DNA of 64,000 nucleotides. Origin: Streptomyces flaveolus (lineage in GTDB: Bacteria > Actinomycetota > Actinomycetes > Streptomycetales > Streptomycetaceae). Made by a program: the position numbers and the translations under genes. Of this stretch, positions 37,316 through 49,515 are shown one piece after another. The notes under the pieces were generated by a model that was not told the DNA's origin, ran no database searches, and worked only from the letters and a program-made list of their open reading frames with translations. The stretch lies in contig NZ_JNWV01000004.1 in assembly GCF_000716535.1 (NCBI RefSeq), forward strand, positions 124,001 to 188,000. The letters run 5' to 3'. How positions within the stretch are numbered: position 1 is the stretch's first letter; every line of letters begins with the position of its first letter.

Positions 37316-37344
37316 TTGACCGCAGCGAATGAGGTAGGTACGCT
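37316..37344 (+). promoter_or_regulatory. rpsL (str operon) promoter
   Basis: TTGACC (37316-37321), 17 bases, TACGCT (37339-37344): an excellent vegetative promoter, giving a leader of about 190 bases before rpsL. Confidence 0.85.
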
Positions 37345-37463: not shown

Positions 37464-37488
37464 CGACACACCCGACCGCGTGGGTCGG
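37464..37488 (+). promoter_or_regulatory. Leader hairpin shared by rpsL and rpsJ
   Basis: A 25-nt stretch beginning CGACACA with stem CCCGACC / GGGTCGG and a short GCGT-type loop; ends 50 bases before rpsL. The same sequence with a single A-to-G change is at 49118-49142 before rpsJ. Probably a regulatory or stabilising element in both leaders; the ligand is unknown. Confidence 0.65.
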
Positions 37489-37538
37489 CGACGTTCCAGG
37501 TTAGCTGTACCCATCGGCACACAGAAACCGGAGAAGTA

Positions 37539-37910
37539 GTGCCTACGATCCAGCAGCTGGTCCGCAAGGGCCGGCAGGACAAGGTCGAGAAGAACAAGAC
37601 GCCCGCACTCGAGGGTTCCCCTCAGCGTCGTGGCGTCTGCACGCGTGTGTTCACGACCACCCCGAAGAAGCCGAACTCGGCCCTCCGCAAGGTCGCGCGT
37701 GTGCGTCTGACCAGCGGCATCGAGGTCACCGCTTACATTCCGGGTGAGGGACACAACCTGCAGGAGCACTCCATCGTGCTCGTGCGCGGCGGCCGTGTGA
37801 AGGACCTGCCGGGTGTTCGCTACAAGATCATCCGCGGCTCGCTCGACACCCAGGGTGTCAAGAACCGCAAGCAGGCTCGCAGCCGTTACGGCGCCAAGAA
37901 GGAGAAGTAA
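37539..37910 (+). CDS. rpsL: 30S ribosomal protein S12
   Basis: A 123-residue S12, the decoding-centre protein. [18 protein letters not shown] and [18 protein letters not shown] contain the wild-type lysines (K43 and K88) whose mutation gives streptomycin resistance or antibiotic overproduction in Streptomyces; none is changed. GTG at 37539 has GGAGAAG upstream. First gene of the str operon, two bases before rpsG. Confidence 0.97.
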
Positions 37911-37912
37911 GA

Positions 37913-38383
37913 ATGCCTCGTAAGGGCCCCGCCCCGAAGCGCCCGGTCATCATCGACCCGGTCTACGGCTCTCCTCTGGTGACCTCCCTGATCAACAAGG
38001 TGCTGCTGAACGGCAAGCGCTCCACCGCCGAGCGCATCGTCTACGGCGCCATGGAGGGCCTGCGCGAGAAGACCGGCAACGACCCGGTCATCACGCTCAA
38101 GCGCGCTCTTGAGAACATCAAGCCGACCCTCGAGGTCAAGTCCCGCCGTGTCGGTGGCGCCACCTACCAGGTCCCGGTCGAGGTCAAGCCCGGCCGTGCC
38201 AACACCCTGGCGCTGCGCTGGCTGGTCGGTTACTCCCGCGCCCGTCGCGAGAAGACCATGACCGAGCGTCTCCTCAACGAGCTTCTCGACGCCTCCAACG
38301 GCCTCGGTGCGGCCGTGAAGAAGCGCGAGGACACCCACAAGATGGCCGAGTCCAACAAGGCCTTCGCGCACTACCGCTGGTAG
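37913..38383 (+). CDS. rpsG: 30S ribosomal protein S7
   Basis: A 156-residue S7, primary assembly protein of the 30S head. [20 protein letters not shown], the arginine-rich [20 protein letters not shown], and [18 protein letters not shown] are conserved. Begins two bases after rpsL, so translation is probably coupled; in E. coli S7 represses its own operon. fusA follows 39 bases later. Confidence 0.97.
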
Positions 38384-38422
38384 TCGCTACCCACATCGAG
38401 ACCGAGAGAAGACTGAAGCCTT

Positions 38423-40549
38423 ATGGCTACCACTTCACTTGACCTGGCCAGGGTCCGAAACATCGGGATCATGGCCCACATCGACGCGGGCAAGACGACC
38501 ACCACCGAGCGGATCCTGTTCTACACCGGTGTGTCTTACAAGATCGGTGAGGTCCACGACGGCGCTGCCACCATGGACTGGATGGAGCAGGAGCAGGAGC
38601 GTGGCATCACGATCACCTCTGCTGCCACCACCTGTCACTGGTCGCTGGAAGACGTCGACCACACCATCAACATCATCGACACGCCGGGTCACGTCGACTT
38701 CACCGTCGAGGTGGAGCGTTCCCTGCGCGTGCTCGACGGTGCTGTCACGGTGTTCGACGGCGTCGCCGGCGTTGAGCCCCAGTCCGAGACGGTGTGGCGT
38801 CAGGCGGACCGCTACGGCGTTCCGCGGATCTGCTTCGTCAACAAGCTCGACCGCACCGGTGCCGAGTTCCACCGCTGTGTCGACATGATCTCCGACCGTC
38901 TGGGCGCGCAGCCGCTGGTCATGCAGCTGCCGATCGGTGCCGAGGCGGACTTCAAGGGCGTCGTCGACCTGGTGAAGATGAAGGCCCTGGTCTGGTCGGC
39001 CGAGGCGACCAAGGGCGAGATGTACGACACCGTCGACATCCCCGCCACGCACACCGAGGCCGCCGAGGAGTGGCGCGGCAAGCTGGTCGAGGCCGTCGCC
39101 GAGAACGACGAAGAGATCATGGAGCTGTACCTGGAGGGCGAGGAGCCCACCGAGGAGCAGCTGTACGCCGCGATCCGTCGTATCACCATCGCGTCCGGCA
39201 AGGGCACCGGCACCACCGTCACCCCGGTGTTCTGCGGCACCGCGTTCAAGAACAAGGGCGTCCAGCCCCTGCTCGACGCGGTCGTGCGCTACCTGCCGTC
39301 CCCGGTCGACATCGAGGCCATCGAGGGCCACGACGTCAAGGACCCGGAGACGGTCATCAAGCGCAAGCCGTCCGACGAGGAGCCGCTGTCCGCGCTGGCG
39401 TTCAAGATCATGAGCGACCCGCACCTGGGCAAGCTGACCTTCGTCCGCGTGTACTCCGGCCGCCTGGAGTCCGGCACCTCCGTGCTGAACTCCGTCAAGG
39501 GCAAGAAGGAGCGCATCGGCAAGATCTACCGCATGCACGCCAACAAGCGTGAGGAGATCGAGTCGGTGGGCGCCGGCGACATCGTCGCCGTCATGGGCCT
39601 GAAGCAGACCACCACCGGTGAGACGCTGTCGGACGACAAGGCCCCGGTGATCCTGGAGTCCATGGACTTCCCGGCGCCGGTCATCCAGGTCGCCATCGAG
39701 CCCAAGTCGAAGGGCGACCAGGAGAAGCTGGGCGTCGCGATCCAGCGCCTGGCCGAGGAGGACCCGTCCTTCCAGGTCCACTCGGACGAGGAGACCGGCC
39801 AGACCATCATCGGCGGTATGGGCGAGCTGCACCTCGAGGTGCTCGTCGACCGTATGCGCCGTGAGTTCAAGGTCGAGGCCAACGTCGGCAAGCCGCAGGT
39901 CGCGTACCGCGAGACCATCCGCAAGGCGGTCGAGAAGGTCGAGTACACCCACAAGAAGCAGACGGGTGGTACCGGTCAGTTCGCCCGCGTCATCATCGCG
40001 ATCGAGCCGATCGAGAGCGGCGACGCCTCGTACGAGTTCGTCAACAAGGTGACCGGTGGCCGCGTGCCGAAGGAGTACATCCCTTCGGTCGACGCCGGTG
40101 CGCAGGAGGCCATGCAGTTCGGCATCCTCGCCGGTTACGAGATGACCGGTGTCCGCGTCACGCTGCTCGACGGTGCCTACCACGAGGTGGACTCCTCCGA
40201 GCTGGCGTTCAAGATCGCCGGTTCGCAGGCCTTCAAGGAGGCCGCGCGCAAGGCCAGCCCTGTGCTCCTTGAGCCGATGATGGCCGTCGAGGTCACCACG
40301 CCCGAGGACTACATGGGCGAGGTCATCGGCGACATCAACTCCCGCCGTGGCCAGATCCAGGCCATGGAGGAGCGGGCTGGTGCCCGCGTCGTGAAGGGCC
40401 TCGTGCCCCTGTCGGAGATGTTCGGCTACGTCGGCGACCTCCGCAGCAAGACGTCGGGTCGCGCAAGCTACTCGATGCAGTTCGACTCCTACGCCGAGGT
40501 TCCGCGGAACGTCGCCGAGGAGATCATCGCGAAGGCCAAGGGCGAGTAA
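38423..40549 (+). CDS. fusA: Elongation factor G
   Basis: A 708-residue EF-G, the translocase GTPase. The G motifs are complete: [15 protein letters not shown] (P-loop), [14 protein letters not shown] (switch I), [16 protein letters not shown] and [10 protein letters not shown]. Domains II to V are full length, ending [19 protein letters not shown]. No unusual change was seen. It lies between rpsG and tuf in the str operon; a hairpin in the fusA-tuf gap may separate expression levels. Confidence 0.97.
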
Positions 40550-40592
40550 CGCACCGCGTTCACACGCCGTAGGCTTGACTCCGGAGCCTCCA

Positions 40593-40626
40593 GGGGCAAA
40601 CGTCCGCAATCGTGAGTGTTTGCCCC
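40593..40626 (+). other. Hairpin in the fusA-tuf gap
   Basis: GGGGCAAAC (40593-40601) pairs with GTTTGCCCC (40618-40626). A TAGGCT at about 40571-40576 could be a -10 for a separate tuf promoter, known in other streptomycetes, but no matching -35 was found. Confidence 0.5.
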
Positions 40627-40705
40627 GGGTTCCGGGCCTTTACAGCAAAGATCACCTGGCGCCGATGAAGTAAGGCGTACAGAACCACTCCACAGGAGGA
40701 CCCCA

Positions 40706-41899
<1,194 letters not shown>

Positions 41900-41963
41900 G
41901 TTCCGCTTGCTTGCGGTTTGACGGCCTGGGGGTCAGTTCCCGACCCGAAGGTCTCGACCTGCG

Positions 41964-41997
41964 AGAGGCCCGTACGACTCCGGTCGTACGGGCCTCT
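41964..41997 (+). terminator. Terminator of the str operon
   Basis: A perfect 15-bp stem (41964-41978 with 41983-41997), loop TCCG, then TCGTCTTTCC. Confidence 0.9.
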
Positions 41998-42022
41998 TCG
42001 TCTTTCCCCGCCCGCGACCGCA

Positions 42023-42028
42023 TACGGT
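42023..42028 (+). promoter_or_regulatory. -10 box of a likely leaderless transcript
   Basis: TACGGT ends exactly seven bases before the GTG at 42036, which has no ribosome site; the same geometry as at murB and at 9218. Confidence 0.5.
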
Positions 42029-42035
42029 TCTCCGG

Positions 42036-42788
42036 GTGAGGAAGAGGACCTTGATACACGCGGCGCTGCAGACCGTCGTCCCCTGGCTGGCGGTGGCGGC
42101 CGTGGTGATCGCCATGGCCTGGCAGCAGGGCCTGTTCGACCGGGGCGCCCCGGCCGCGTCGGGTCCGGCCCGCACCATCGCGCTGCCGGGAGGCGGGTTC
42201 TCCGACGGCGGCCGGTGCGGAGCCAAGGGCTACCACTACTTCCCGCTGCCCGCGGACGCGTCCGCACCCCCCGCGGCGCAGTCCGCCGACTCGCGGCCCG
42301 GTCCGCAGCTCGTGCTCGGCTCCTACGGCTACGAGAAGCTGTCCCGCGCCCCCGGCCGCTTCACCGTCGGCCTGCTCTTCGCGCCGGGCCCCGAGGGATC
42401 GCTGAAGCTGTCGCGGACCCTGGGCGGCGAGGGCGTCGCCGTCGAGATCGAGGGCCCGGACGGGCTGGTCGGCGGAGCGCACGGCCTGCCCGTCACCTGG
42501 GATTCCGCCACGCAGTCCGGCACCGGTGGCAGCGCCGAGGTGTCCCTGCCGCTGGAGGCACTGTGCCCCGGGCAGGACGCGGAGACCGTGAGGAAGAGGC
42601 TCGAGCCGCCGATCGACTCCTCCAACACCATCACCGGGCAGCCGGCCTACACCCTGACCGTGTCGGTGCGTGACCCGGGCATCGGAACGCAGCGCAGGTC
42701 GATCGGCCTCCCGCCGGGCGGCAACCTGCTCAGCGCGAACAATCTGGTGCCGGAGGACGGCTCCATGCTCGCGAGCACGGCGTACTGA
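42036..42788 (+). CDS. Membrane-anchored or secreted hypothetical protein
   Basis: A 250-residue protein with one hydrophobic N-terminal segment (about residues 10-28, VVPWLAVAAVVIAMAW), then a Pro/Ala/Ser-rich extracellular region with paired cysteines (GGRCGAKGYHYF; LEALCPGQD). Beta-rich stretches follow, with no known catalytic motif. GTG at 42036 appears leaderless. I do not recognise the family. It is the first gene after the str operon terminator and starts the variable interval before the S10 operon. Confidence 0.65.
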   Translation: MRKRTLIHAALQTVVPWLAVAAVVIAMAWQQGLFDRGAPAASGPARTIALPGGGFSDGGRCGAKGYHYFPLPADASAPPAAQSADSRPGPQLVLGSYGYEKLSRAPGRFTVGLLFAPGPEGSLKLSRTLGGEGVAVEIEGPDGLVGGAHGLPVTWDSATQSGTGGSAEVSLPLEALCPGQDAETVRKRLEPPIDSSNTITGQPAYTLTVSVRDPGIGTQRRSIGLPPGGNLLSANNLVPEDGSMLASTAY

Positions 42789-42845
42789 CGGCTTCGAAAC
42801 TATTCGGCGCGTACGACCCGTTCCCCCCGCCCCTGCCTCCCTCCA

Positions 42846-42872
42846 CTATTTGTCATGCCGGTGAGCAAATAG
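42846..42872 (+). promoter_or_regulatory. Candidate operator before the GH115 gene
   Basis: Inverted repeat CTATTTG (42846-42852) and CAAATAG (42866-42872) with a 13-base spacer, 28 bases before the GH115 start and A/T-rich against its surroundings. A possible repressor site for sugar-responsive control. Confidence 0.35.
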
Positions 42873-42899
42873 GTGCTGGAGGTACTGGAGGGGTGAGGT

Positions 42900-45800
42900 A
42901 TGTCGTCTGCGCACGTCAGCCGTAGGACGGTGCTCGGCGGGACGGTCCTGGGCGCCGGGCTGGCCGCGATGCCCGTGGGGGCCTCGGGGACCGCGTCCGC
43001 CGCCACGGGGGACGGGCTCCGGGTGACGGACCCGGGGGCGTACATCTCGTTCACGGGCGGGGTGTTCTCCCTGGTCGGCGCGCCCGTGGTGGTGAGCGCG
43101 GAGGACCACCCCGGGGTCGTGCGGGTGGCCGGGGACCTCCGGGACGACCTCGCGCGCGTGACCGGCGTCCGCCCCGGCACGACGATCGGCCGCTTCCCGG
43201 TGCTCCTCGGCACGATCGGCCGCAGCCCGCTGATCGACGGCCTGATCCGGTCCGGAAGGCTCGACGTCACGGGCGTACGGGGCAGGTGGGAGACCTCGCT
43301 GCAGACGGTCGTGGAGCACCCGATGCCCGGCGTGGAGCGGGCGTTCGTCATCGCGGGCAGCGACCCGCGGGGCACGATCTTCGGGGCGTACGACGTCTCG
43401 TACGGCATCGGCGTCTCGCCCTGGCACTGGTGGGCCGACGTGCCGCCGGCCCGGCGCGACGCGGTGTGGGTGAAGGCCGGCCGCTTCACCCAGGGCACCC
43501 CGGCGGTGAAGTACCGGGGCGTCTTCATCAACGACGAGAACCCGGCGCTCGGCACCTGGGCACCGGCGTACTTCGGCCCGGGGAAGGCACCTAGCTACCC
43601 CGGCGGCTTCACCGCCGACTTCTACACGAAGGTCTTCGAGGTCCTGCTGCGCCTGAAGGGCAACTACCTGTGGCCGGCGGTGTGGGGCCGGGCGTTCGCG
43701 GAGGACGACCCGGACAACCACCGGCGGGCGGCCGAGTACGGCATCGTCATGGGCACGTCCCACGAGGCGCCGATGATGCGGGGCATCGAGGAGTGGAACC
43801 GGCACGCAGGCTCCGGGACCGACCCCTACGGGGGCACGGGCGAATGGTCGTACCGCCGCAACGCGGAGGCGATCCGCGCGTACTGGCGCGCGGGCATCCA
43901 GCGCATGGTCGACCAGGGCTTCGAGGGCGTCGTCACCCTCGGCATGCGCGGCAACGGCGACACCGGCCTGCCCGACGGCGACGGCATCGAACTGATGCAG
44001 CAGATCATCGCCGACCAGCGCCGCATCATCGAGGAGGTGACCGGCAGGCCGGCGGCCGAGACCCCCCAGGTCTGGACCCTCTACAAGGAGGTGCAGCGCT
44101 ACTGGGACCGCGGCCTGCGCGCCCCGGACGACGTCACCGTGGTCCTCACCGACGACAACTGGGGCAACATCCGCAAGCACCCGGACAGCCCCCGCACCGG
44201 CGGCTACGGCCTCTACTACCACTTCGACTACGTCGGCGCCGGCCGCAACTACAAGTGGGTCGACACCGCCAACCTCAGGAACGTCTGGGACCAGCTCCAC
44301 CAGGCGCACGCCTACGGCAACCACGGCCTGTGGGTGGCCAACGTCGGCGACCTGAAGGGCAACGAACTGCCGACGGAGTTCTTCCTCGGCTACGCCTGGA
44401 ATCCCGACGCCTGGCCGCTGGAGCGCCTCGGCGCGTGGGAGGAGCGCTACGCCCGCCAGAACTTCGGCGAGGCACAGGCGAAGGAGATCGCGTCCCTGCT
44501 GGCGACCTACGGACGGCTCCAGGCCCGCCGCAAGCCGGAGCTGCTGAACCGCCGGATCACCCTCTCCGGCGATCAGGTCGTGTACGACGACCAGCAGAGC
44601 CCGTACTACTTCGCGCACCGGGAACTGGAACGGGTCACCGAGGAGTGGCGCGCGCTGGGGCGCCGCGCGGAACGCGTCGAGCGCAGACTGCCGGGGAAGC
44701 TGCGGGACGCGTGGTTCGAACTGGCGGGTTACGCGGTCACGGCGACCGCGAACCTGTACGCGCTGCGGGAAGCGGAGTTCACGAACCTGCTGTACGCGGC
44801 GCAGGGCCGGGCCGCGACCAACGACCGCGCGGCGCAGGCGGAGGCCGCCCTCGGCCAGGACCTCGCCCTCGCCGACCGCTTCAACTCCCGTGTGGCCGAC
44901 GGGAAATGGCAGGGCTTCCAGACCCAGCCGCACATCGACTACGGGGACGTCGAGCGCTACGGCCCCAATGCGGGGTGGCAGCAGCCGGAGAAGGACAACG
45001 TGGCGCTGCCGGATGTGCTGTTCCCCGCGGTGAGGCGCATCGAGGTGCCCTCGGGCGCGGAGCTGGGCGTGTCCGTGGACGGGGCCGAGGACGCGGGGGA
45101 GTGGTGGCCGGGAGGTTCCTCCTCGGCCGCGTCGCTGCCACCGTTCAGCCCGTACCAGACCCGCCCCCGGCAGTACGTGGAGATCTTCAACCGGGGCCGT
45201 ACGCCCTTCCCGTACGAGGTCTCGGTCTCGGCGCCCTGGCTGCGGGTGGCCCGCCCGCGCGGCCGGGTGGACCAGCAGGTCCGCCTGGAGGTGGAGGTGG
45301 ACTGGTCCCTGGCTCCGGCCGGGCGCGCGGAGGCGACTTTGACGGTCCACGGGGCGGGTGCGTCGGTCCCGGTCCGCTGTGTGGCGGAACGCCCGTCGGG
45401 GGTGCGGGTGCGGGGCTTCGTGGAGGCCGGCGGCTACGTGGCGATCGACGCCGGGCACTACGACCGGGCGGTCGGGCAGTGGCGCCGTATCGACGGCATC
45501 GGCCGGACCGGCGCGGGTGTGACCCCGTGGCCGGTGACGTCCCCGAGCCGTACTCCGGGCGGCGACTCACCTCGCCTGGAGTACGAGGTGACGCTGCTGT
45601 CCGCTCCCGGCGAGGTGACGGTCTGGGCCCATCTGTCCCCCCGCAACCCGGCCGTCCCCGGCGTCGCGGGCCTGCGCTACGGCATCTCCCTCGACGACGG
45701 CCCGATCCGGACCGTGGACATCACGACGGGTGCGGACGACGGCGCGCTGAACACGGTGTGGGCCCGCCACACCTCGGACAACGTCAACGCGACGGCGACC

Positions 45801-45956
45801 ACGCACGCCGTGACGAAGCCGGGCGTCCACCGGCTGAAGTTCTGGATGGTGGACCCGACGGTGGTCGTACAACGCCTGCTCATCGACACGGGCGGGCTGC
45901 CGCGGCTGTATCTGGGGCCGCTGGAGAGCGCGCGGGTGGGGGAGGGTCACCCGTAG
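42900..45956 (+). CDS. Secreted GH115-family alpha-glucuronidase
   Basis: A 1,018-residue protein with a Tat signal (SRRTVLGGTVLGAG at residues 7-20; cleavage near 35 after TASAA). The body matches glycoside hydrolase family 115, xylan alpha-1,2-(4-O-methyl)-glucuronosidases: an N-terminal domain, then a barrel with SYGIGVSPWHWWADVPPA, KYRGVFINDENPALG, LKGNYLWPAVWGRAF, GTSHEAPMMRG and VTLGMRGNGDTG. A C-terminal beta domain at about 830-1010 follows. It removes glucuronic acid side chains from xylan outside the cell. ATG at 42900 with GGAGGGGTGAGG upstream. Its last 10 bases overlap the convergent gene. Confidence 0.85.
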   Translation: MSSAHVSRRTVLGGTVLGAGLAAMPVGASGTASAATGDGLRVTDPGAYISFTGGVFSLVGAPVVVSAEDHPGVVRVAGDLRDDLARVTGVRPGTTIGRFPVLLGTIGRSPLIDGLIRSGRLDVTGVRGRWETSLQTVVEHPMPGVERAFVIAGSDPRGTIFGAYDVSYGIGVSPWHWWADVPPARRDAVWVKAGRFTQGTPAVKYRGVFINDENPALGTWAPAYFGPGKAPSYPGGFTADFYTKVFEVLLRLKGNYLWPAVWGRAFAEDDPDNHRRAAEYGIVMGTSHEAPMMRGIEEWNRHAGSGTDPYGGTGEWSYRRNAEAIRAYWRAGIQRMVDQGFEGVVTLGMRGNGDTGLPDGDGIELMQQIIADQRRIIEEVTGRPAAETPQVWTLYKEVQRYWDRGLRAPDDVTVVLTDDNWGNIRKHPDSPRTGGYGLYYHFDYVGAGRNYKWVDTANLRNVWDQLHQAHAYGNHGLWVANVGDLKGNELPTEFFLGYAWNPDAWPLERLGAWEERYARQNFGEAQAKEIASLLATYGRLQARRKPELLNRRITLSGDQVVYDDQQSPYYFAHRELERVTEEWRALGRRAERVERRLPGKLRDAWFELAGYAVTATANLYALREAEFTNLLYAAQGRAATNDRAAQAEAALGQDLALADRFNSRVADGKWQGFQTQPHIDYGDVERYGPNAGWQQPEKDNVALPDVLFPAVRRIEVPSGAELGVSVDGAEDAGEWWPGGSSSAASLPPFSPYQTRPRQYVEIFNRGRTPFPYEVSVSAPWLRVARPRGRVDQQVRLEVEVDWSLAPAGRAEATLTVHGAGASVPVRCVAERPSGVRVRGFVEAGGYVAIDAGHYDRAVGQWRRIDGIGRTGAGVTPWPVTSPSRTPGGDSPRLEYEVTLLSAPGEVTVWAHLSPRNPAVPGVAGLRYGISLDDGPIRTVDITTGADDGALNTVWARHTSDNVNATATTHAVTKPGVHRLKFWMVDPTVVVQRLLIDTGGLPRLYLGPLESARVGEGHP

Positions 45957-46537
45957 AGCGGCAGACCCTCCGTCGAGATCGTCCAGTCGGCGATCGTCAC
46001 GTCCTCGCCATAGACGAAGTCCTTGCGTGTGGCGTAGCGGGGGCCGGCCGGAGTGGGGTGGATGTCCGTGAAGACGGCGCCTGTGCCGGTGCGGGGGTCG
46101 AAGACCGCGTAGACCGGGACACCCATCAGGGGGTAGTCGCGGACCTTGCCCACCCAGTCGTTGTCCGGGTTGGAGCGGGAGACGATCTCGATGGCGGCGA
46201 TGAGCGTGCGGGGATCGAAGCAACCCGGGACGTCCATGTCCTCCATGGTGATCACCATGATGTCCGGTCGGCGCATGAGGCCCTGGGACTCGTCCTCGAC
46301 ATCCGGTTCGCCGGTGTGAGCCACGATCTCCTCTGGCATCACCCTTTCCAGACGCCTCCGCAGGTGCACAGTGGTCAGCTCATGCGGACCGACGGGCGCC
46401 GTCGTGTCGTGGACGATCCCTTCCTGGGTGATCTCGAACTTGCCGGGCAGGATGTCGTCCGCGGACTGCACGAAATCCCGCATGGCTCGGTAGCGGTGGA
46501 AAGCGCCCCGCCGCGCGTTGCCCGGTGCGATGGTCAT
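45947..46537 (-). CDS. Uma2-family (DUF820) PD-(D/E)XK nuclease-like protein
   Basis: A 196-residue protein. RPDIMVITMEDMD, AAIEIVSRSNPDNDW and VGKVRDYPLMGVPVYAVFDP supply the Asp...Glu-x-x...Lys core of the Uma2/DUF820 PD-(D/E)XK fold, which is abundant and of unknown role in Streptomyces. ATG at 46537 has AGGAG 11 bases upstream; the ATG at 46585 lacks a site. Cleavage activity is inferred from the fold only. Its 3' end overlaps the GH115 gene. Confidence 0.8.
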   Translation of the reverse strand: MTIAPGNARRGAFHRYRAMRDFVQSADDILPGKFEITQEGIVHDTTAPVGPHELTTVHLRRRLERVMPEEIVAHTGEPDVEDESQGLMRRPDIMVITMEDMDVPGCFDPRTLIAAIEIVSRSNPDNDWVGKVRDYPLMGVPVYAVFDPRTGTGAVFTDIHPTPAGPRYATRKDFVYGEDVTIADWTISTEGLPLYG

Positions 46538-46586
46538 GGCGCTCGCTCCTCGTCTGTGCCCAGGGGCAAGGATCGTCGCTTTCATG

Positions 46587-47456
46587 CTAGGCGGACTCCT
46601 GGAGGCGGGTTCGGCAGCCGCGGCAGCGGCCCGGTCGTGGCGCGCGGAAGGCGCGGTCGCAGCCGTCGCAGGTCTGGAGAGGGTGCCGGACGGTCGGGGG
46701 CGGTTCGGGTGCGCGGTACGGGGGAAGGGGCGGGAGTCCGGCCGCCAGGCGGTGGGCCAGGAGTGCGGCCGGACGGATCAGGGGTTCCTCCGGCAGGCCC
46801 GTGGTCAGTGCGTGGCGTACGGCGGTGGGGGTGAGGTCCCGCTCCAGCCAGGCCGCGACACCGGGGGCGAGGTGCTCGGTCTCGGTGGCGGACAGGAGCA
46901 GGCGCGGGTCCGTGCGGCGCAGGTCCGAGAGGACGCCGGTGGCCGCCCGCAGGAGGGCGGGGGAGGGGTACGCGGGCTCGGGTACGGCGGGGAGGGCCGC
47001 GCGGCGGGCGGGCTTGTGCTGCGCCGCGGTGGCCGCCCGGCGCGTTCGCGGGGCCTCGGACGCCTCACGCCGGTGGCCCGGCTGGTTGCAGGAGATCGTG
47101 CGGGTGACGATACGGCCGCCGGGGACGCGGGTGCGTTCGCGGCGCAGGTAGCCGTGGGCCTCCAGCTCGCGCAGCGCGGCGGCGATACGGGTCGCGCCCT
47201 CGGGGAAGCGGGCGGCGAGGGTCTTGATGTCGACGCGGGCGCCGGGCGGCAGCGACTGGATGTGGCAGGCCAGACCGATCGCGAGGAGCGAGAGGTCCGG
47301 GTGCTGGGCGAGGTGGTTGCCGATCACCGTGAACCGTGTGGTGTGGCGGGTGTGGTCGTGGATGAGCCCGCCGCTGTGAGGGGCCCGGTTCGGGTGGTTG
47401 TCGGCGGTAACGGGGGACGCGGCGCATGTGGGCGCGCTAGGGTTTTCAACATCCAT
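46587..47456 (-). CDS. Helix-turn-helix protein with C-terminal zinc ribbon
   Basis: A 289-residue protein. Residues about 35-125 form a winged helix (FTVIGNHLAQHPDLSLLAIG, then TLAARFPEGATRIAAALREL and GYLRRERTRVPGGR). An Ala/Arg-rich linker and a helical region follow. Near the C-terminus CDGCDRAF and GRCRGCRTRL form a CxxC...CxxC zinc ribbon. Such proteins are common in Streptomyces as unclassified DNA-binding proteins. ATG at 47456 has GAGGAAGG upstream; the open frame continues to 47972 but that part covers gene relics and is not coding. Target unknown. Confidence 0.75.
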   Translation of the reverse strand: MDVENPSAPTCAASPVTADNHPNRAPHSGGLIHDHTRHTTRFTVIGNHLAQHPDLSLLAIGLACHIQSLPPGARVDIKTLAARFPEGATRIAAALRELEAHGYLRRERTRVPGGRIVTRTISCNQPGHRREASEAPRTRRAATAAQHKPARRAALPAVPEPAYPSPALLRAATGVLSDLRRTDPRLLLSATETEHLAPGVAAWLERDLTPTAVRHALTTGLPEEPLIRPAALLAHRLAAGLPPLPPYRAPEPPPTVRHPLQTCDGCDRAFRAPRPGRCRGCRTRLQESA

Positions 47457-47655
47457 CGGGAAGTTGGAGCCTTCCTCGGTGGTCAGGCCCTCGCTCGGGA
47501 TCGCTACTCCCGGCGAGGGCCGACGCATGTGTACGGTCCTGTCGCGCCGAGCGTAAGGCAGGCAACCCGCCCGAAATCCAGCCGAGTTGGACGTATTCAC
47601 CCTCGCGGGTGAGTCAGCGCCGTGGGCGGGAGGGGTGGGGCTTGGCGGGGTTCTT

Positions 47656-47808
47656 TCACCTCGTTGTTCCTTGGGGAAAGCCGCCCATGGCGCCGGAGCA
47701 CGAGGTGTCGGGTTCCGGTGCGGTGAGAGCGACCTCGGCCCAGACGGTCTTGGCCGGATGCCGTCCGTGGGCGACGCCCCAGCGGTCGGCGAGGGCCGCG
47801 CCGACGAC
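47656..47808 (-). pseudogene. C-terminal relic of an RsbW-like ATP-binding protein
   Basis: The minus-strand frame reads VVGAALADRWGVAHGRHPAK followed by TVWAEVAL and a natural stop at 47656-47658. This is the typical C-terminal end of Streptomyces anti-sigma-factor-like HATPase proteins. An in-frame TAG (47809-47811) directly precedes it and no upstream catalytic part is present, so the 5' part has been lost. Confidence 0.65.
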
Positions 47809-47811
47809 CTA

Positions 47812-47901
47812 GAGCGGCAACTGGAAGTCGCCGCCGCGTCCCTGGCCACCATCCACGTCCGCGACTCCGAGAACCCCGGCGCCCCCGCCTGGGCGGGGTG
47901 C
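47812..47901 (+). pseudogene. Relic of a DUF397 gene
   Basis: The plus-strand frame reads LEVAAASLATIHVRDSENPG, the diagnostic core of DUF397 proteins (normally preceded by a W-K-S-S-Y segment, which is absent). It abuts the ATPase relic. The fragment continues into unrelated sequence without the usual C-terminal motif. Confidence 0.6.
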
Positions 47902-48247
47902 CTGTGGAATCCGTACCCGTGGGGACCCCCGGCTTGCCGTCGTGTGGGCCCCGCCCCGGCAGTGGGGCCCACCGCCCTCCGGTCCCGCTCCGGGGCCCTC
48001 GGCCGGCTCGGTCTCCTAGCTTCATGGGCTGTCGCTACTCTGGCAGGTGCACGCTAATGACCTAGTCGCCGAGTCGGTGGCCGTGGTCAACCGGAGCGAG
48101 GTCGGCTCCGACGACGCCCCCGCCCTGACGCAGAGGCTGAGGTTCTCGGCCCTCGTGGGCGGGGTGCGCCGTGACCTCATGCAGTCCCAGGTGTATCTGG
48201 TCCGCCCGGACCGAGCAGTAGTCGACCATTCGCAGGCGGTTCTTCTG

Positions 48248-48757
48248 ATGGGGCTTTTCGATCTGTTCACCGGCACCCGGCGCCCTGACAGCGGGGTCGC
48301 GGCACGGTCGCCCGGGGAGGTGCGGGCGGCGCTGCTCGCGGTCGGCGGGCCGGACGTGCCGTACACCGTGCGCGAGGGCGCCGCCGACGGCGCCGAGCTG
48401 GTGGCGGAATGGCGCGTCCGGGAACCCGCCTGGCACACCTTCTTCGCCCGGACCCAGGTGAGCCGGACCCTTGAGATCCGGATGCGTCTGGTCCCGGAGC
48501 GTCGTGAGGTCCGCGCTCTCGACCGGGAGTGGGAGGTCACCTGGGTCGGCGAAACGCCCAGGCTGGCCTTGTCCAAGGAGCAGTCCCGCGGGCAGGTCAG
48601 GACCGTCTCGCGGCGCTGGACGGTCGACCGGGGGAGCGACGGCAGGCTCCGGATGACGGAGGACTTCCGCTTCGATTCCGCAGAGCTGAAGACGCCCCTC
48701 CAGGAGGCGGTCCTCCGCATGGGGTGGATATGGCGCGGGGCCCTGTTCAAACTGTGA
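48248..48757 (+). CDS. Conserved-looking hypothetical protein
   Basis: A 169-residue protein beginning GLFDLFTGTRRPDSGVAARS. It contains alternating charged and hydrophobic strands (AELVAEWRVREPAWHTFF; RTLEIRMRLVPERREVRAL; DREWEVTWVGETPRL) and ends WIWRGALFKL, suggesting a single beta-rich cytoplasmic domain. The ATG at 48248 begins the ordered part; the frame is open from 48047 but that part looks non-coding. I do not recognise a named domain. It is the last gene before the S10 operon. Confidence 0.65.
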   Translation: MGLFDLFTGTRRPDSGVAARSPGEVRAALLAVGGPDVPYTVREGAADGAELVAEWRVREPAWHTFFARTQVSRTLEIRMRLVPERREVRALDREWEVTWVGETPRLALSKEQSRGQVRTVSRRWTVDRGSDGRLRMTEDFRFDSAELKTPLQEAVLRMGWIWRGALFKL

Positions 48758-48794
48758 TCGCCGGGCTGTGGTCCCGACGCGGCAGCACCCGGGT

Positions 48795-48822
48795 TTGACC
48801 TACATCACTCCCGGGGTAATCT
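48795..48822 (+). promoter_or_regulatory. S10 operon promoter
   Basis: TTGACC (48795-48800), 16 bases, TAATCT (48817-48822). This gives a leader of about 380 bases before rpsJ. No other gene was seen in 48758-49206. Confidence 0.7.
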
Positions 48823-49117
48823 CTTCGGCTCGATTGGCGGAGGAGCTGCCCCATATGGCAGACTGTCCGAGTTGCTCGGTCGAGTGTTGATGCTGCGCGC
48901 CTCCCGCCGGGAGGACCGGAAGCGAGTCCCACAGTACTCGTCGTCCTAACTGCCCTCGGGCAGCACTGGGGCGGACGTACGGGAATCTTCCGGGAAGCGT
49001 GGGCGCGGCACCGGCCAGGCGCCCGGTGGGCCCGAGGTCCCCGGTCCGCGGTTCCGGAAGGGCCGTGTCAATCCCGCAGGGATGTTCGAACAAGGGACAT
49101 CTGTGTCAGCGGGAGCG

Positions 49118-49142
49118 CGACACGCCCGACCGCGTGGGTCGG
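49118..49142 (+). promoter_or_regulatory. Leader hairpin shared by rpsJ and rpsL
   Basis: The same 25-nt stem-loop as at 37464-37488 (CCCGACC / GGGTCGG), one base different, ending 64 bases before rpsJ. Confidence 0.65.
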
Positions 49143-49206: not shown

Positions 49207-49515
49207 ATGGCGGGACAGAAGATCCGCATCCGGCTCAAGGCCTACGACCACGAGGTCATCGACTCCTCGGCGAAGAAGATCGTCGAGACGGTGACCCGCA
49301 CTGGTGCGTCGGTCGCGGGCCCGGTGCCGCTGCCCACTGAGAAGAACGTGTACTGCGTCATCAAGTCGCCGCACAAGTACAAGGACTCGCGCGAGCACTT
49401 CGAGATGCGCACGCACAAGCGCCTGATCGACATCCTCGACCCGACCCCCAAGACCGTTGACTCTCTGATGCGACTCGACCTGCCGGCCGGTGTCGACATC
49501 GAGATCAAGCTCTGA
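49207..49515 (+). CDS. rpsJ: 30S ribosomal protein S10
   Basis: A 102-residue S10 (NusE), a 30S head protein and partner of NusB/NusG in transcription antitermination. [40 protein letters not shown] and [20 protein letters not shown] are conserved. First gene of the S10 operon, with a long leader; rplC follows after 16 bases. Confidence 0.97.

What the first reader, a model, noticed from the sequence alone, without database searches (positions are those of the whole stretch)
37464..49142. Same 25-nt leader hairpin before rpsL and rpsJ
Positions 37464-37488 and 49118-49142 are identical except for one A/G difference and fold as CCCGACC/GGGTCGG with a short loop. They lie 50 and 64 bases before the first genes of two separate ribosomal operons (str and S10), 11.6 kb apart. 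The surrounding leader sequence differs, so this is a conserved island rather than a recent duplication. It could be a protein-binding site, an mRNA stability element or an antitermination signal shared by both operons.
Basis: seen in the sequence. Interest (0 to 1): 0.7.

Follow-up and report, generated by a model that had tools for sequence, protein, structure and literature searches.

The report
WhiA operator heading both ribosomal operons
The repeated 25-letter sequence in front of two ribosomal protein operons is real and conserved across actinobacteria, and is most likely a DNA docking site for the regulator WhiA rather than an RNA hairpin, which suggests that a protein best known for sporulation also oversees ribosome production.

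Summary
The repeat is real. CGACAC[A/G]CCCGACCGCGTGGGTCGG lies 50 nt before rpsL and 64 nt before rpsJ. These are the only two matches (up to 3 mismatches) in the 10.35 Mb genome; 149 of 150 congeneric genomes match. Across the class it precedes rpsL in 90 of 100 distinct leaders and rpsJ in 50 of 94, mainly where rpsJ is separated from tuf.

Its left half, GACACRCC, is the published WhiA core. Published ChIP-seq places WhiA 75 bp before rpsJ in Streptomyces venezuelae, and a 2024 paper shows WhiA acting on a mycoplasma rpsJ operon. The hairpin reading is weak: among 70 distinct sites no stem pair shows a compensatory change, and 17 keep all six pairs. In 21 other genomes of the phylum a related element sits 3-6 bp upstream of a -35 box, before rpsL in all 21.

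Best explanation: a bipartite WhiA DNA operator at the heads of the str and S10 operons. WhiA control of rpsJ is known; the rpsL copy and the 25-bp form were not in the main-text passages I read. How a site 114 or 290 nt downstream of the predicted start acts is not shown.

The parts
37464..37488 (+). rpsL copy of the 25-bp element: CGACACACCCGACCGCGTGGGTCGG
37465..37472 (+). WhiA core GACACACC within the rpsL copy
   Evidence: matches GAYACRCY (PMC11701221) and GACAC (PMC3781837)
37473..37488 (+). conserved second half CGACCGCGTGGGTCGG (actinobacterial auxiliary part, inferred)
37316..37344 (+). predicted sigma-A-type promoter of rpsL, TTGACC-17-TACGCT; predicted start about 37351, 114 nt upstream of the core
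   Evidence: (L041; a TTGACC-17-TAC[G/C]CT pair in all 8 congeneric leaders L035-L042), alignment
37539..37910 (+). rpsL (S12), first gene of the str operon
49118..49142 (+). rpsJ copy of the 25-bp element: CGACACGCCCGACCGCGTGGGTCGG
49119..49126 (+). WhiA core GACACGCC within the rpsJ copy
   Evidence: published WhiA ChIP peak 75 bp before rpsJ in S. venezuelae
49127..49142 (+). conserved second half CGACCGCGTGGGTCGG
48795..48822 (+). predicted promoter of rpsJ, TTGACC-16-TAATCT; predicted start about 48829, 290 nt upstream of the core
   Evidence: (L071; a pair found in 7 of the 8 congeneric leaders L065-L072), alignment
49207..49515 (+). rpsJ (S10), first gene of the S10 operon

Best explanation
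The 25-mer is a double-stranded DNA operator for WhiA. The C-terminal HTH of WhiA recognises GACACRCC (published footprinting, ChIP and EMSA support the core in other species). The second half, CCCG-N4-CGKGGGTCGG, is probably an actinobacterial auxiliary half contacted by WhiA's LAGLIDADG-like domain (inferred). Such a site heads the separately transcribed parts of the str/S10 ribosomal superoperon, so one regulator could set both operons. The direction and mechanism of control in this genome are not shown. In S. venezuelae the whiA mutant has lower rpsJ expression; in Mycoplasma gallisepticum WhiA represses rpsJ and is proposed to be relieved by ATP. The site lies downstream of the predicted start here, as published for Mollicutes, so an effect on early elongation or initiation, or on DNA bending or looping, is the most likely route (inferred).
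For: The core matches the published WhiA site, and ChIP-seq in S. venezuelae places WhiA 75 bp before rpsJ (here the core is 81-88 bp before the ATG). The GAYACRCY core at rpsJ is published across phyla, and in most Mollicutes it too lies downstream of the start. Conserved at both operons: 149 of 150 congeneric genomes; 90 of 100 distinct rpsL leaders and 50 of 94 rpsJ leaders of the class at up to 6 mismatches, against 1 of 100 and 0 of 94 shuffled. Of 73 genomes with both leaders, 72 have at least one copy at up to 7 mismatches, and the 73rd keeps GACACGCCCGG. In 21 of 396 phylum genomes ACGCCCGG-NNN-CGTGG sits 3-6 bp upstream of TTGAC (24 sites; reversed control 0 in every row). All 24 are preceded by GAN, 19 of 24 match GAYACRCY, and TANNNT follows at 17-18 bp in 22 of 24 (my reading). 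Of the 24 sites 21, one in each genome, lie before rpsL and 3 before tuf: a DNA position at translation genes. All 21 of those genomes have WhiA. Of 33 other-class genomes with leaders examined, the relaxed element is in 7 of 21 with WhiA and 0 of 12 without (Fisher one-sided p 0.027); limited to the 27 with a readable rpsL leader, 7 of 17 and 0 of 10 (p 0.022; leaders, WhiA). No stem covariation. The genome encodes a full WhiA with three WhiA domains.
Against: No binding data for rpsL were seen: rpsL occurs 0 times in the main texts of both WhiA papers, and supplementary files could not be opened. The predicted start lies about 114 nt (rpsL) and 290 nt (rpsJ) upstream of the core, odd for a classical operator; that scan had far more upstream than downstream sequence to search, and 37 of 134 sites gave no promoter. 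Reported effects differ in sign between S. venezuelae and M. gallisepticum. In Bacilli the same core is embedded in a covarying RNA leader (RF03136), so an RNA role is conceivable. Outside the class the core is looser: only 2 of the 7 relaxed elements and 19 of the 24 sites match GAYACRCY, and strict GAYACRCY is in 2 of 27 rpsL and 2 of 40 rpsJ leaders (shuffled 0 and 1). The PF02650 search did not ring in the B. subtilis control although the literature gives that species a WhiA, so absences in the co-occurrence test may be false. Within the class WhiA is nearly universal (111 of 118) and uninformative. Two other published ChIP targets in the window (infA, rpsH) have neither GACAC on either strand nor the 19-mer below 4 mismatches within 320 nt upstream.
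Confidence: 0.8

Rival explanations
1. An RNA leader element: the transcribed hairpin CCGACC-GCGTG-GGTCGG with its GACAC 5' flank is bound by a ribosomal protein or an antitermination factor.
For: In all 97 of 134 class sites where a promoter was found, it lies upstream of the element; the hairpin is perfect in this genome; in Bacilli the core lies within leaders that match the S10 leader RF03136 (4 of 7 loci scanned), whose outer stem covaries strongly.
Against: 0 two-sided changes in 6 pairs over 70 distinct 25-mers, 93 of 420 cells broken, 17 of 70 with all six pairs; abrupt sequence island with no conserved flank; related element upstream of the -35 box in 21 genomes; relative to the RF03136 consensus the GACACACC block is an insert in the one alignment viewed; no Rfam hit at E<=10 for the rpsJ copy.
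Confidence: 0.12
2. A DNA operator for another regulator that happens to include GACAC, or for a WhiA partner such as WhiB.
For: Much of the second half is as conserved as the core and has no assigned reader; in S. venezuelae WhiA and WhiB need each other in vivo (passage).
Against: The core is the published WhiA site and WhiA is found at rpsJ by ChIP; the GAYACRCY core is reported across phyla that retain whiA, while Wbl proteins are described as exclusive to Actinobacteria (abstract start).
Confidence: 0.06
3. A structural site (chromosome organisation, looping between the two operons) without direct control of transcription.
For: WhiA affects chromosome segregation in B. subtilis (passage); position relative to the predicted promoter varies between lineages.
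Against: Sites track operon heads and are mostly absent where rpsJ is close to tuf; expression of rpsJ changes in a whiA mutant of S. venezuelae and with site mutations in M. gallisepticum.
Confidence: 0.02

Closest known systems
WhiA operators of Streptomyces (Bush et al. 2013, PMC3781837; passages, sections 8 and 13 read)
   Same: GACAC core; WhiA ChIP peak 75 bp before rpsJ
   Different: There the motif is 5 bp and MEME found no further associated sequence; here 25 bp with a conserved second half, and a second copy at rpsL
WhiA site in the rpsJ operon promoter (Fisunov et al. 2024, PMC11701221; abstract, passages and five sections read)
   Same: GAYACRCY core at rpsJ, a clade-specific auxiliary motif downstream in some clades, site downstream of the start in most Mollicutes
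   Different: Auxiliary motif GTTGT in M. gallisepticum against CGKGGGTCGG here; rpsL is not mentioned in the main text; its supplementary figure of clade motifs was not seen
S10-Clostridia ribosomal protein leader (Rfam RF03136)
   Same: Bacilli rpsJ leaders that match it also carry GACACACCCGG
   Different: A structured RNA with covarying stems; the window does not match it, and the GACACACC block is an insert to its consensus
rpsJ motif RLC-47-1 (PMC11109978, passages)
   Same: 5' UTR of rpsJ

Membership tests
WhiA operator | GACAC / GAYACRCY core upstream of the target | tested here: met
WhiA operator | WhiA encoded in the same genome | tested here: met
   three WhiA Pfam domains
WhiA operator | WhiA binding shown at the site | not testable with these tools
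   published for rpsJ in S. venezuelae by ChIP; nothing seen for rpsL
WhiA operator | co-occurrence of site and WhiA across genomes | tested here: inconclusive
   7 of 21 with WhiA against 0 of 12 without, p 0.027; 7 of 17 against 0 of 10 with a readable rpsL leader, p 0.022; B. subtilis control missed; near-universal in class
Structured ribosomal-protein leader RNA | compensatory base changes in the stem | tested here: not met
   no two-sided change in 70 distinct 25-mers
Structured ribosomal-protein leader RNA | element transcribed in all lineages | tested here: not met
   upstream of the -35 box in 21 of 396 phylum genomes (24 sites); the promoters are predicted, not mapped
S10-Clostridia leader RF03136 | covariance-model match | tested here: not met
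   no match in the window; it matches 4 of the 7 Bacilli loci scanned

The most novel reading that the evidence does not exclude
The ancestral job of WhiA is to control the heads of the ribosomal operons: it reads a bipartite site, the HTH on GACACRCC and the LAGLIDADG-like domain on CCCG-N4-CGKGGGTCGG, and couples str and S10 transcription to cell energy across actinobacteria. Sporulation control in Streptomyces would be a later recruitment using the short core alone.
Probability: 0.35. Interest if true: 0.75.

Novelty: new member of a known kind. Interest (0 to 1): 0.55.

Why it matters
Bush et al. counted 15,116 GACAC sequences in S. venezuelae, only a fraction of them bound, and wrote that further specificity determinants must presumably exist. 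The 25-bp element offers a concrete candidate determinant and two highly conserved sites to test it on. It also points to ribosome production as a conserved function of WhiA in non-sporulating bacteria, and ties the str operon (rpsL), not only S10, to it.

Tried and rejected
RNA hairpin: tested by pair counts and rejected as the main reading. An alternative stem CCCG/CGGG is 257 of 280 paired but has no two-sided change either. An enclosing stem in actinobacterial leaders was sought by duplex energies. With swapped partners some windows looked better than control (rpsL z -3.0 and -3.6 at 35 and 50 nt, rpsJ z -6.2 at 20 nt); with composition-matched shuffles the mean z was near 0 (-0.25 to 0.32). 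The Bacilli positive control, z -4.0 under swapping, also gave about 0 under shuffling (0.12), so this test says nothing either way. RNAalifold of 22 rpsL and 19 rpsJ congeneric leaders folds the 25-mer into the hairpin, where it hardly varies, and gave no convincing covarying stem around it.

ResR/McdR of mycobacteria (PMC10336103, passages) was considered as the regulator; the ribosomal target shown there is rplN, so it was dropped.

A -10-like box just downstream of the element (TTAGCT/TTAGTT in the aligned rpsL leaders) was considered as a second promoter; I saw no counterpart at rpsJ, and there is no conserved signal at that distance class-wide.

WhiA co-occurrence inside the class is uninformative because WhiA is nearly universal.

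A text search for motif letters in print found two Pseudomonas papers by listing, neither about this. Searches for WhiA with rpsL and WhiA with ribosomal terms showed no report of the rpsL site in the listings. Supplementary files could not be opened and subscription papers are not held, so the rpsL site may already be in a table I did not see.

Rows dropped before counts: 12 of 118 class genomes without an S12 match and 12 of 118 without an S10 match; leaders shorter than 60 nt (two reported); leaders identical over their last 200 nt counted once; 7 of 40 other-class regions too short for the WhiA comparison.
Full report
Observation. The two 25-mers are as described. The stem is CCGACC/GGTCGG with loop GCGTG, not CCCGACC/GGGTCGG. 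In the window the 24-mer has 2 matches at up to 3 mismatches against 0.00 expected, and in the whole genome only these 2. The bare core GACACRCC is not enriched in the window: 11 matches against 10.4 expected. An 18-mer covering core and inner second half has 6 exact matches in the genome, these two included, and 122 at up to 1 mismatch against 74 for the reversed control, so specificity needs the whole element.

Distribution. Of 150 congeneric genomes 149 match at up to 2 mismatches; by my reading of the table 148 have two matches, one (G775) has one, and the one without (G654) is 79% complete. Of 296 class genomes 259 match at up to 3 mismatches. From leaders chosen by homology of S12 or S10, not by motif, 90 of 100 distinct rpsL leaders and 50 of 94 rpsJ leaders carry it at up to 6 mismatches; shuffled leaders 1 of 100 and 0 of 94. 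In 73 genomes with both leaders, at up to 7 mismatches: 39 rpsL copy only, 26 both, 7 rpsJ only, 1 neither. The last, L161, still has GACACGCCCGG upstream of rpsJ. With an rpsJ copy the tuf-rpsJ gap is 235 nt or more in all 35 measured; without a copy 30 of 43 measured gaps are below 235 nt and 13 above, one of them 811 nt (L161). So the copies mark operon heads, imperfectly.

Anatomy. Over 96 rpsL and 60 rpsJ sites (these include loci first found by the motif) GACAC, CCCG and CG-K-G are nearly invariant, the tail TCGG less so, and conservation stops at both edges. A promoter-like pair was found at 97 of 134 sites, upstream in all 97. For this genome it gives starts 114 and 290 nt before the core; the pair is visibly conserved in aligned congeneric leaders.

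DNA or RNA. In 70 distinct 25-mers, 327 of 420 cells of the stem pair, no pair shows a change on both sides, and 17 of 70 keep all six pairs. In other classes of the phylum 7 of 67 leaders have GANACRCCCGNNNNCGKGG at up to 1 mismatch (0.05 expected by shuffles), all before rpsL; only 2 of these 7 have a strict GAYACRCY. A gapped pattern placing the element just before TTGAC matches 21 of 396 phylum genomes, 24 sites, reversed control 0 in every row; 19 of the 24 match GAYACRCY. By tblastn 21 of the 24 sites, one per genome, lie before rpsL, and the other 3 before tuf. There the element is upstream of the predicted transcript. In 74 of 80 Bacilli rpsJ leaders GAYACRCY is present, mostly as GACACACCCGG (shuffles 1.4 of 80), about 36-38 or 87-133 nt after the best-scoring predicted start in all but one of 74, inside a leader whose outer stem covaries and which matches RF03136 in 4 of the 7 Bacilli loci scanned. 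The block is an insert to that family's consensus in the one alignment viewed.

Known biology. Bush et al. 2013 (PMC3781837; passages, sections 8 and 13 read) report GACAC as the WhiA site, a ChIP peak 75 bp before rpsJ and lower expression of translation targets, S10 included, in a whiA mutant. Fisunov et al. 2024 (PMC11701221; abstract, passages, sections 3.2, 3.4, 3.8, 4.1 and 4.2 read) report the GAYACRCY core at rpsJ in many phyla, Actinobacteria among those listed, clade-specific downstream motifs, WhiA repression of rpsJ in M. gallisepticum and ATP sensing. Neither main text contains the word rpsL. Eckert and Weinberg 2020 (PMC7247131, passages) list no actinobacterial S10 or S12 leader in their table of new leaders.

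WhiA. The genome has one HTH_WhiA match, in a gene with all three WhiA Pfam domains; its closest solved relatives by sequence are chains of 8dy7 and 8dy9, named WhiA. That these are RNA polymerase complexes with WhiB is recalled, not from a call. WhiA was found in 111 of 118 class genomes and in 39 of 51 other-class genomes, including all 21 with the promoter-adjacent element. Among other-class genomes not chosen by motif the element is in 7 of 21 with WhiA and 0 of 12 without (p 0.027), or 7 of 17 and 0 of 10 where an rpsL leader was readable (p 0.022). The control B. subtilis did not ring, against the literature, so absences are uncertain.

Conclusion. A WhiA DNA operator fits the core, the published ChIP, the class-wide conservation at both operons and the promoter-adjacent copies at rpsL and tuf. 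The role of the second half, the sign of control and the mechanism from inside the leader are inferred. RNA function is not excluded for this class.

Noticed in passing
window 48870-49030 (+): The rpsJ leader holds a long, strongly conserved, apparently structured block (GGACCGGAAGCGAGTCCCACAGTACTCGTCG and surroundings); RNAalifold on 19 congeneric leaders gives 89 pairs, 8 with two-sided changes, in the whole leader. No Rfam match at gathering threshold; in loci L001-L262 the block was found (up to 9 mismatches) only in loci of this genus. A candidate unannotated ribosomal leader.
   Followed up: partly
window 41900-48794: The tuf-rpsJ interval is over 7 kb here and very variable in the genus (the two elements lie about 5 to 40 kb apart in the listed rows), while the 25-mers stay nearly constant.
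   Followed up: no
window 47457-47700 (-): Match to Rfam RF02673 (Streptomyces sRNA scr4677), 188.8 bits.
   Followed up: no
L359, L364, L365 (G455, G494, G552): A second copy of the promoter-adjacent element lies upstream of an EF-Tu (tuf) gene.
   Followed up: partly
L263-L342, rpsJ leaders of Bacilli: GACACACCCGGCC-N-CTTTGCCATGGC is highly conserved inside the S10 leader RNA and may be a WhiA site nested in a ribosomal leader; predicted starts about 37 nt or about 104 nt before the core.
   Followed up: partly
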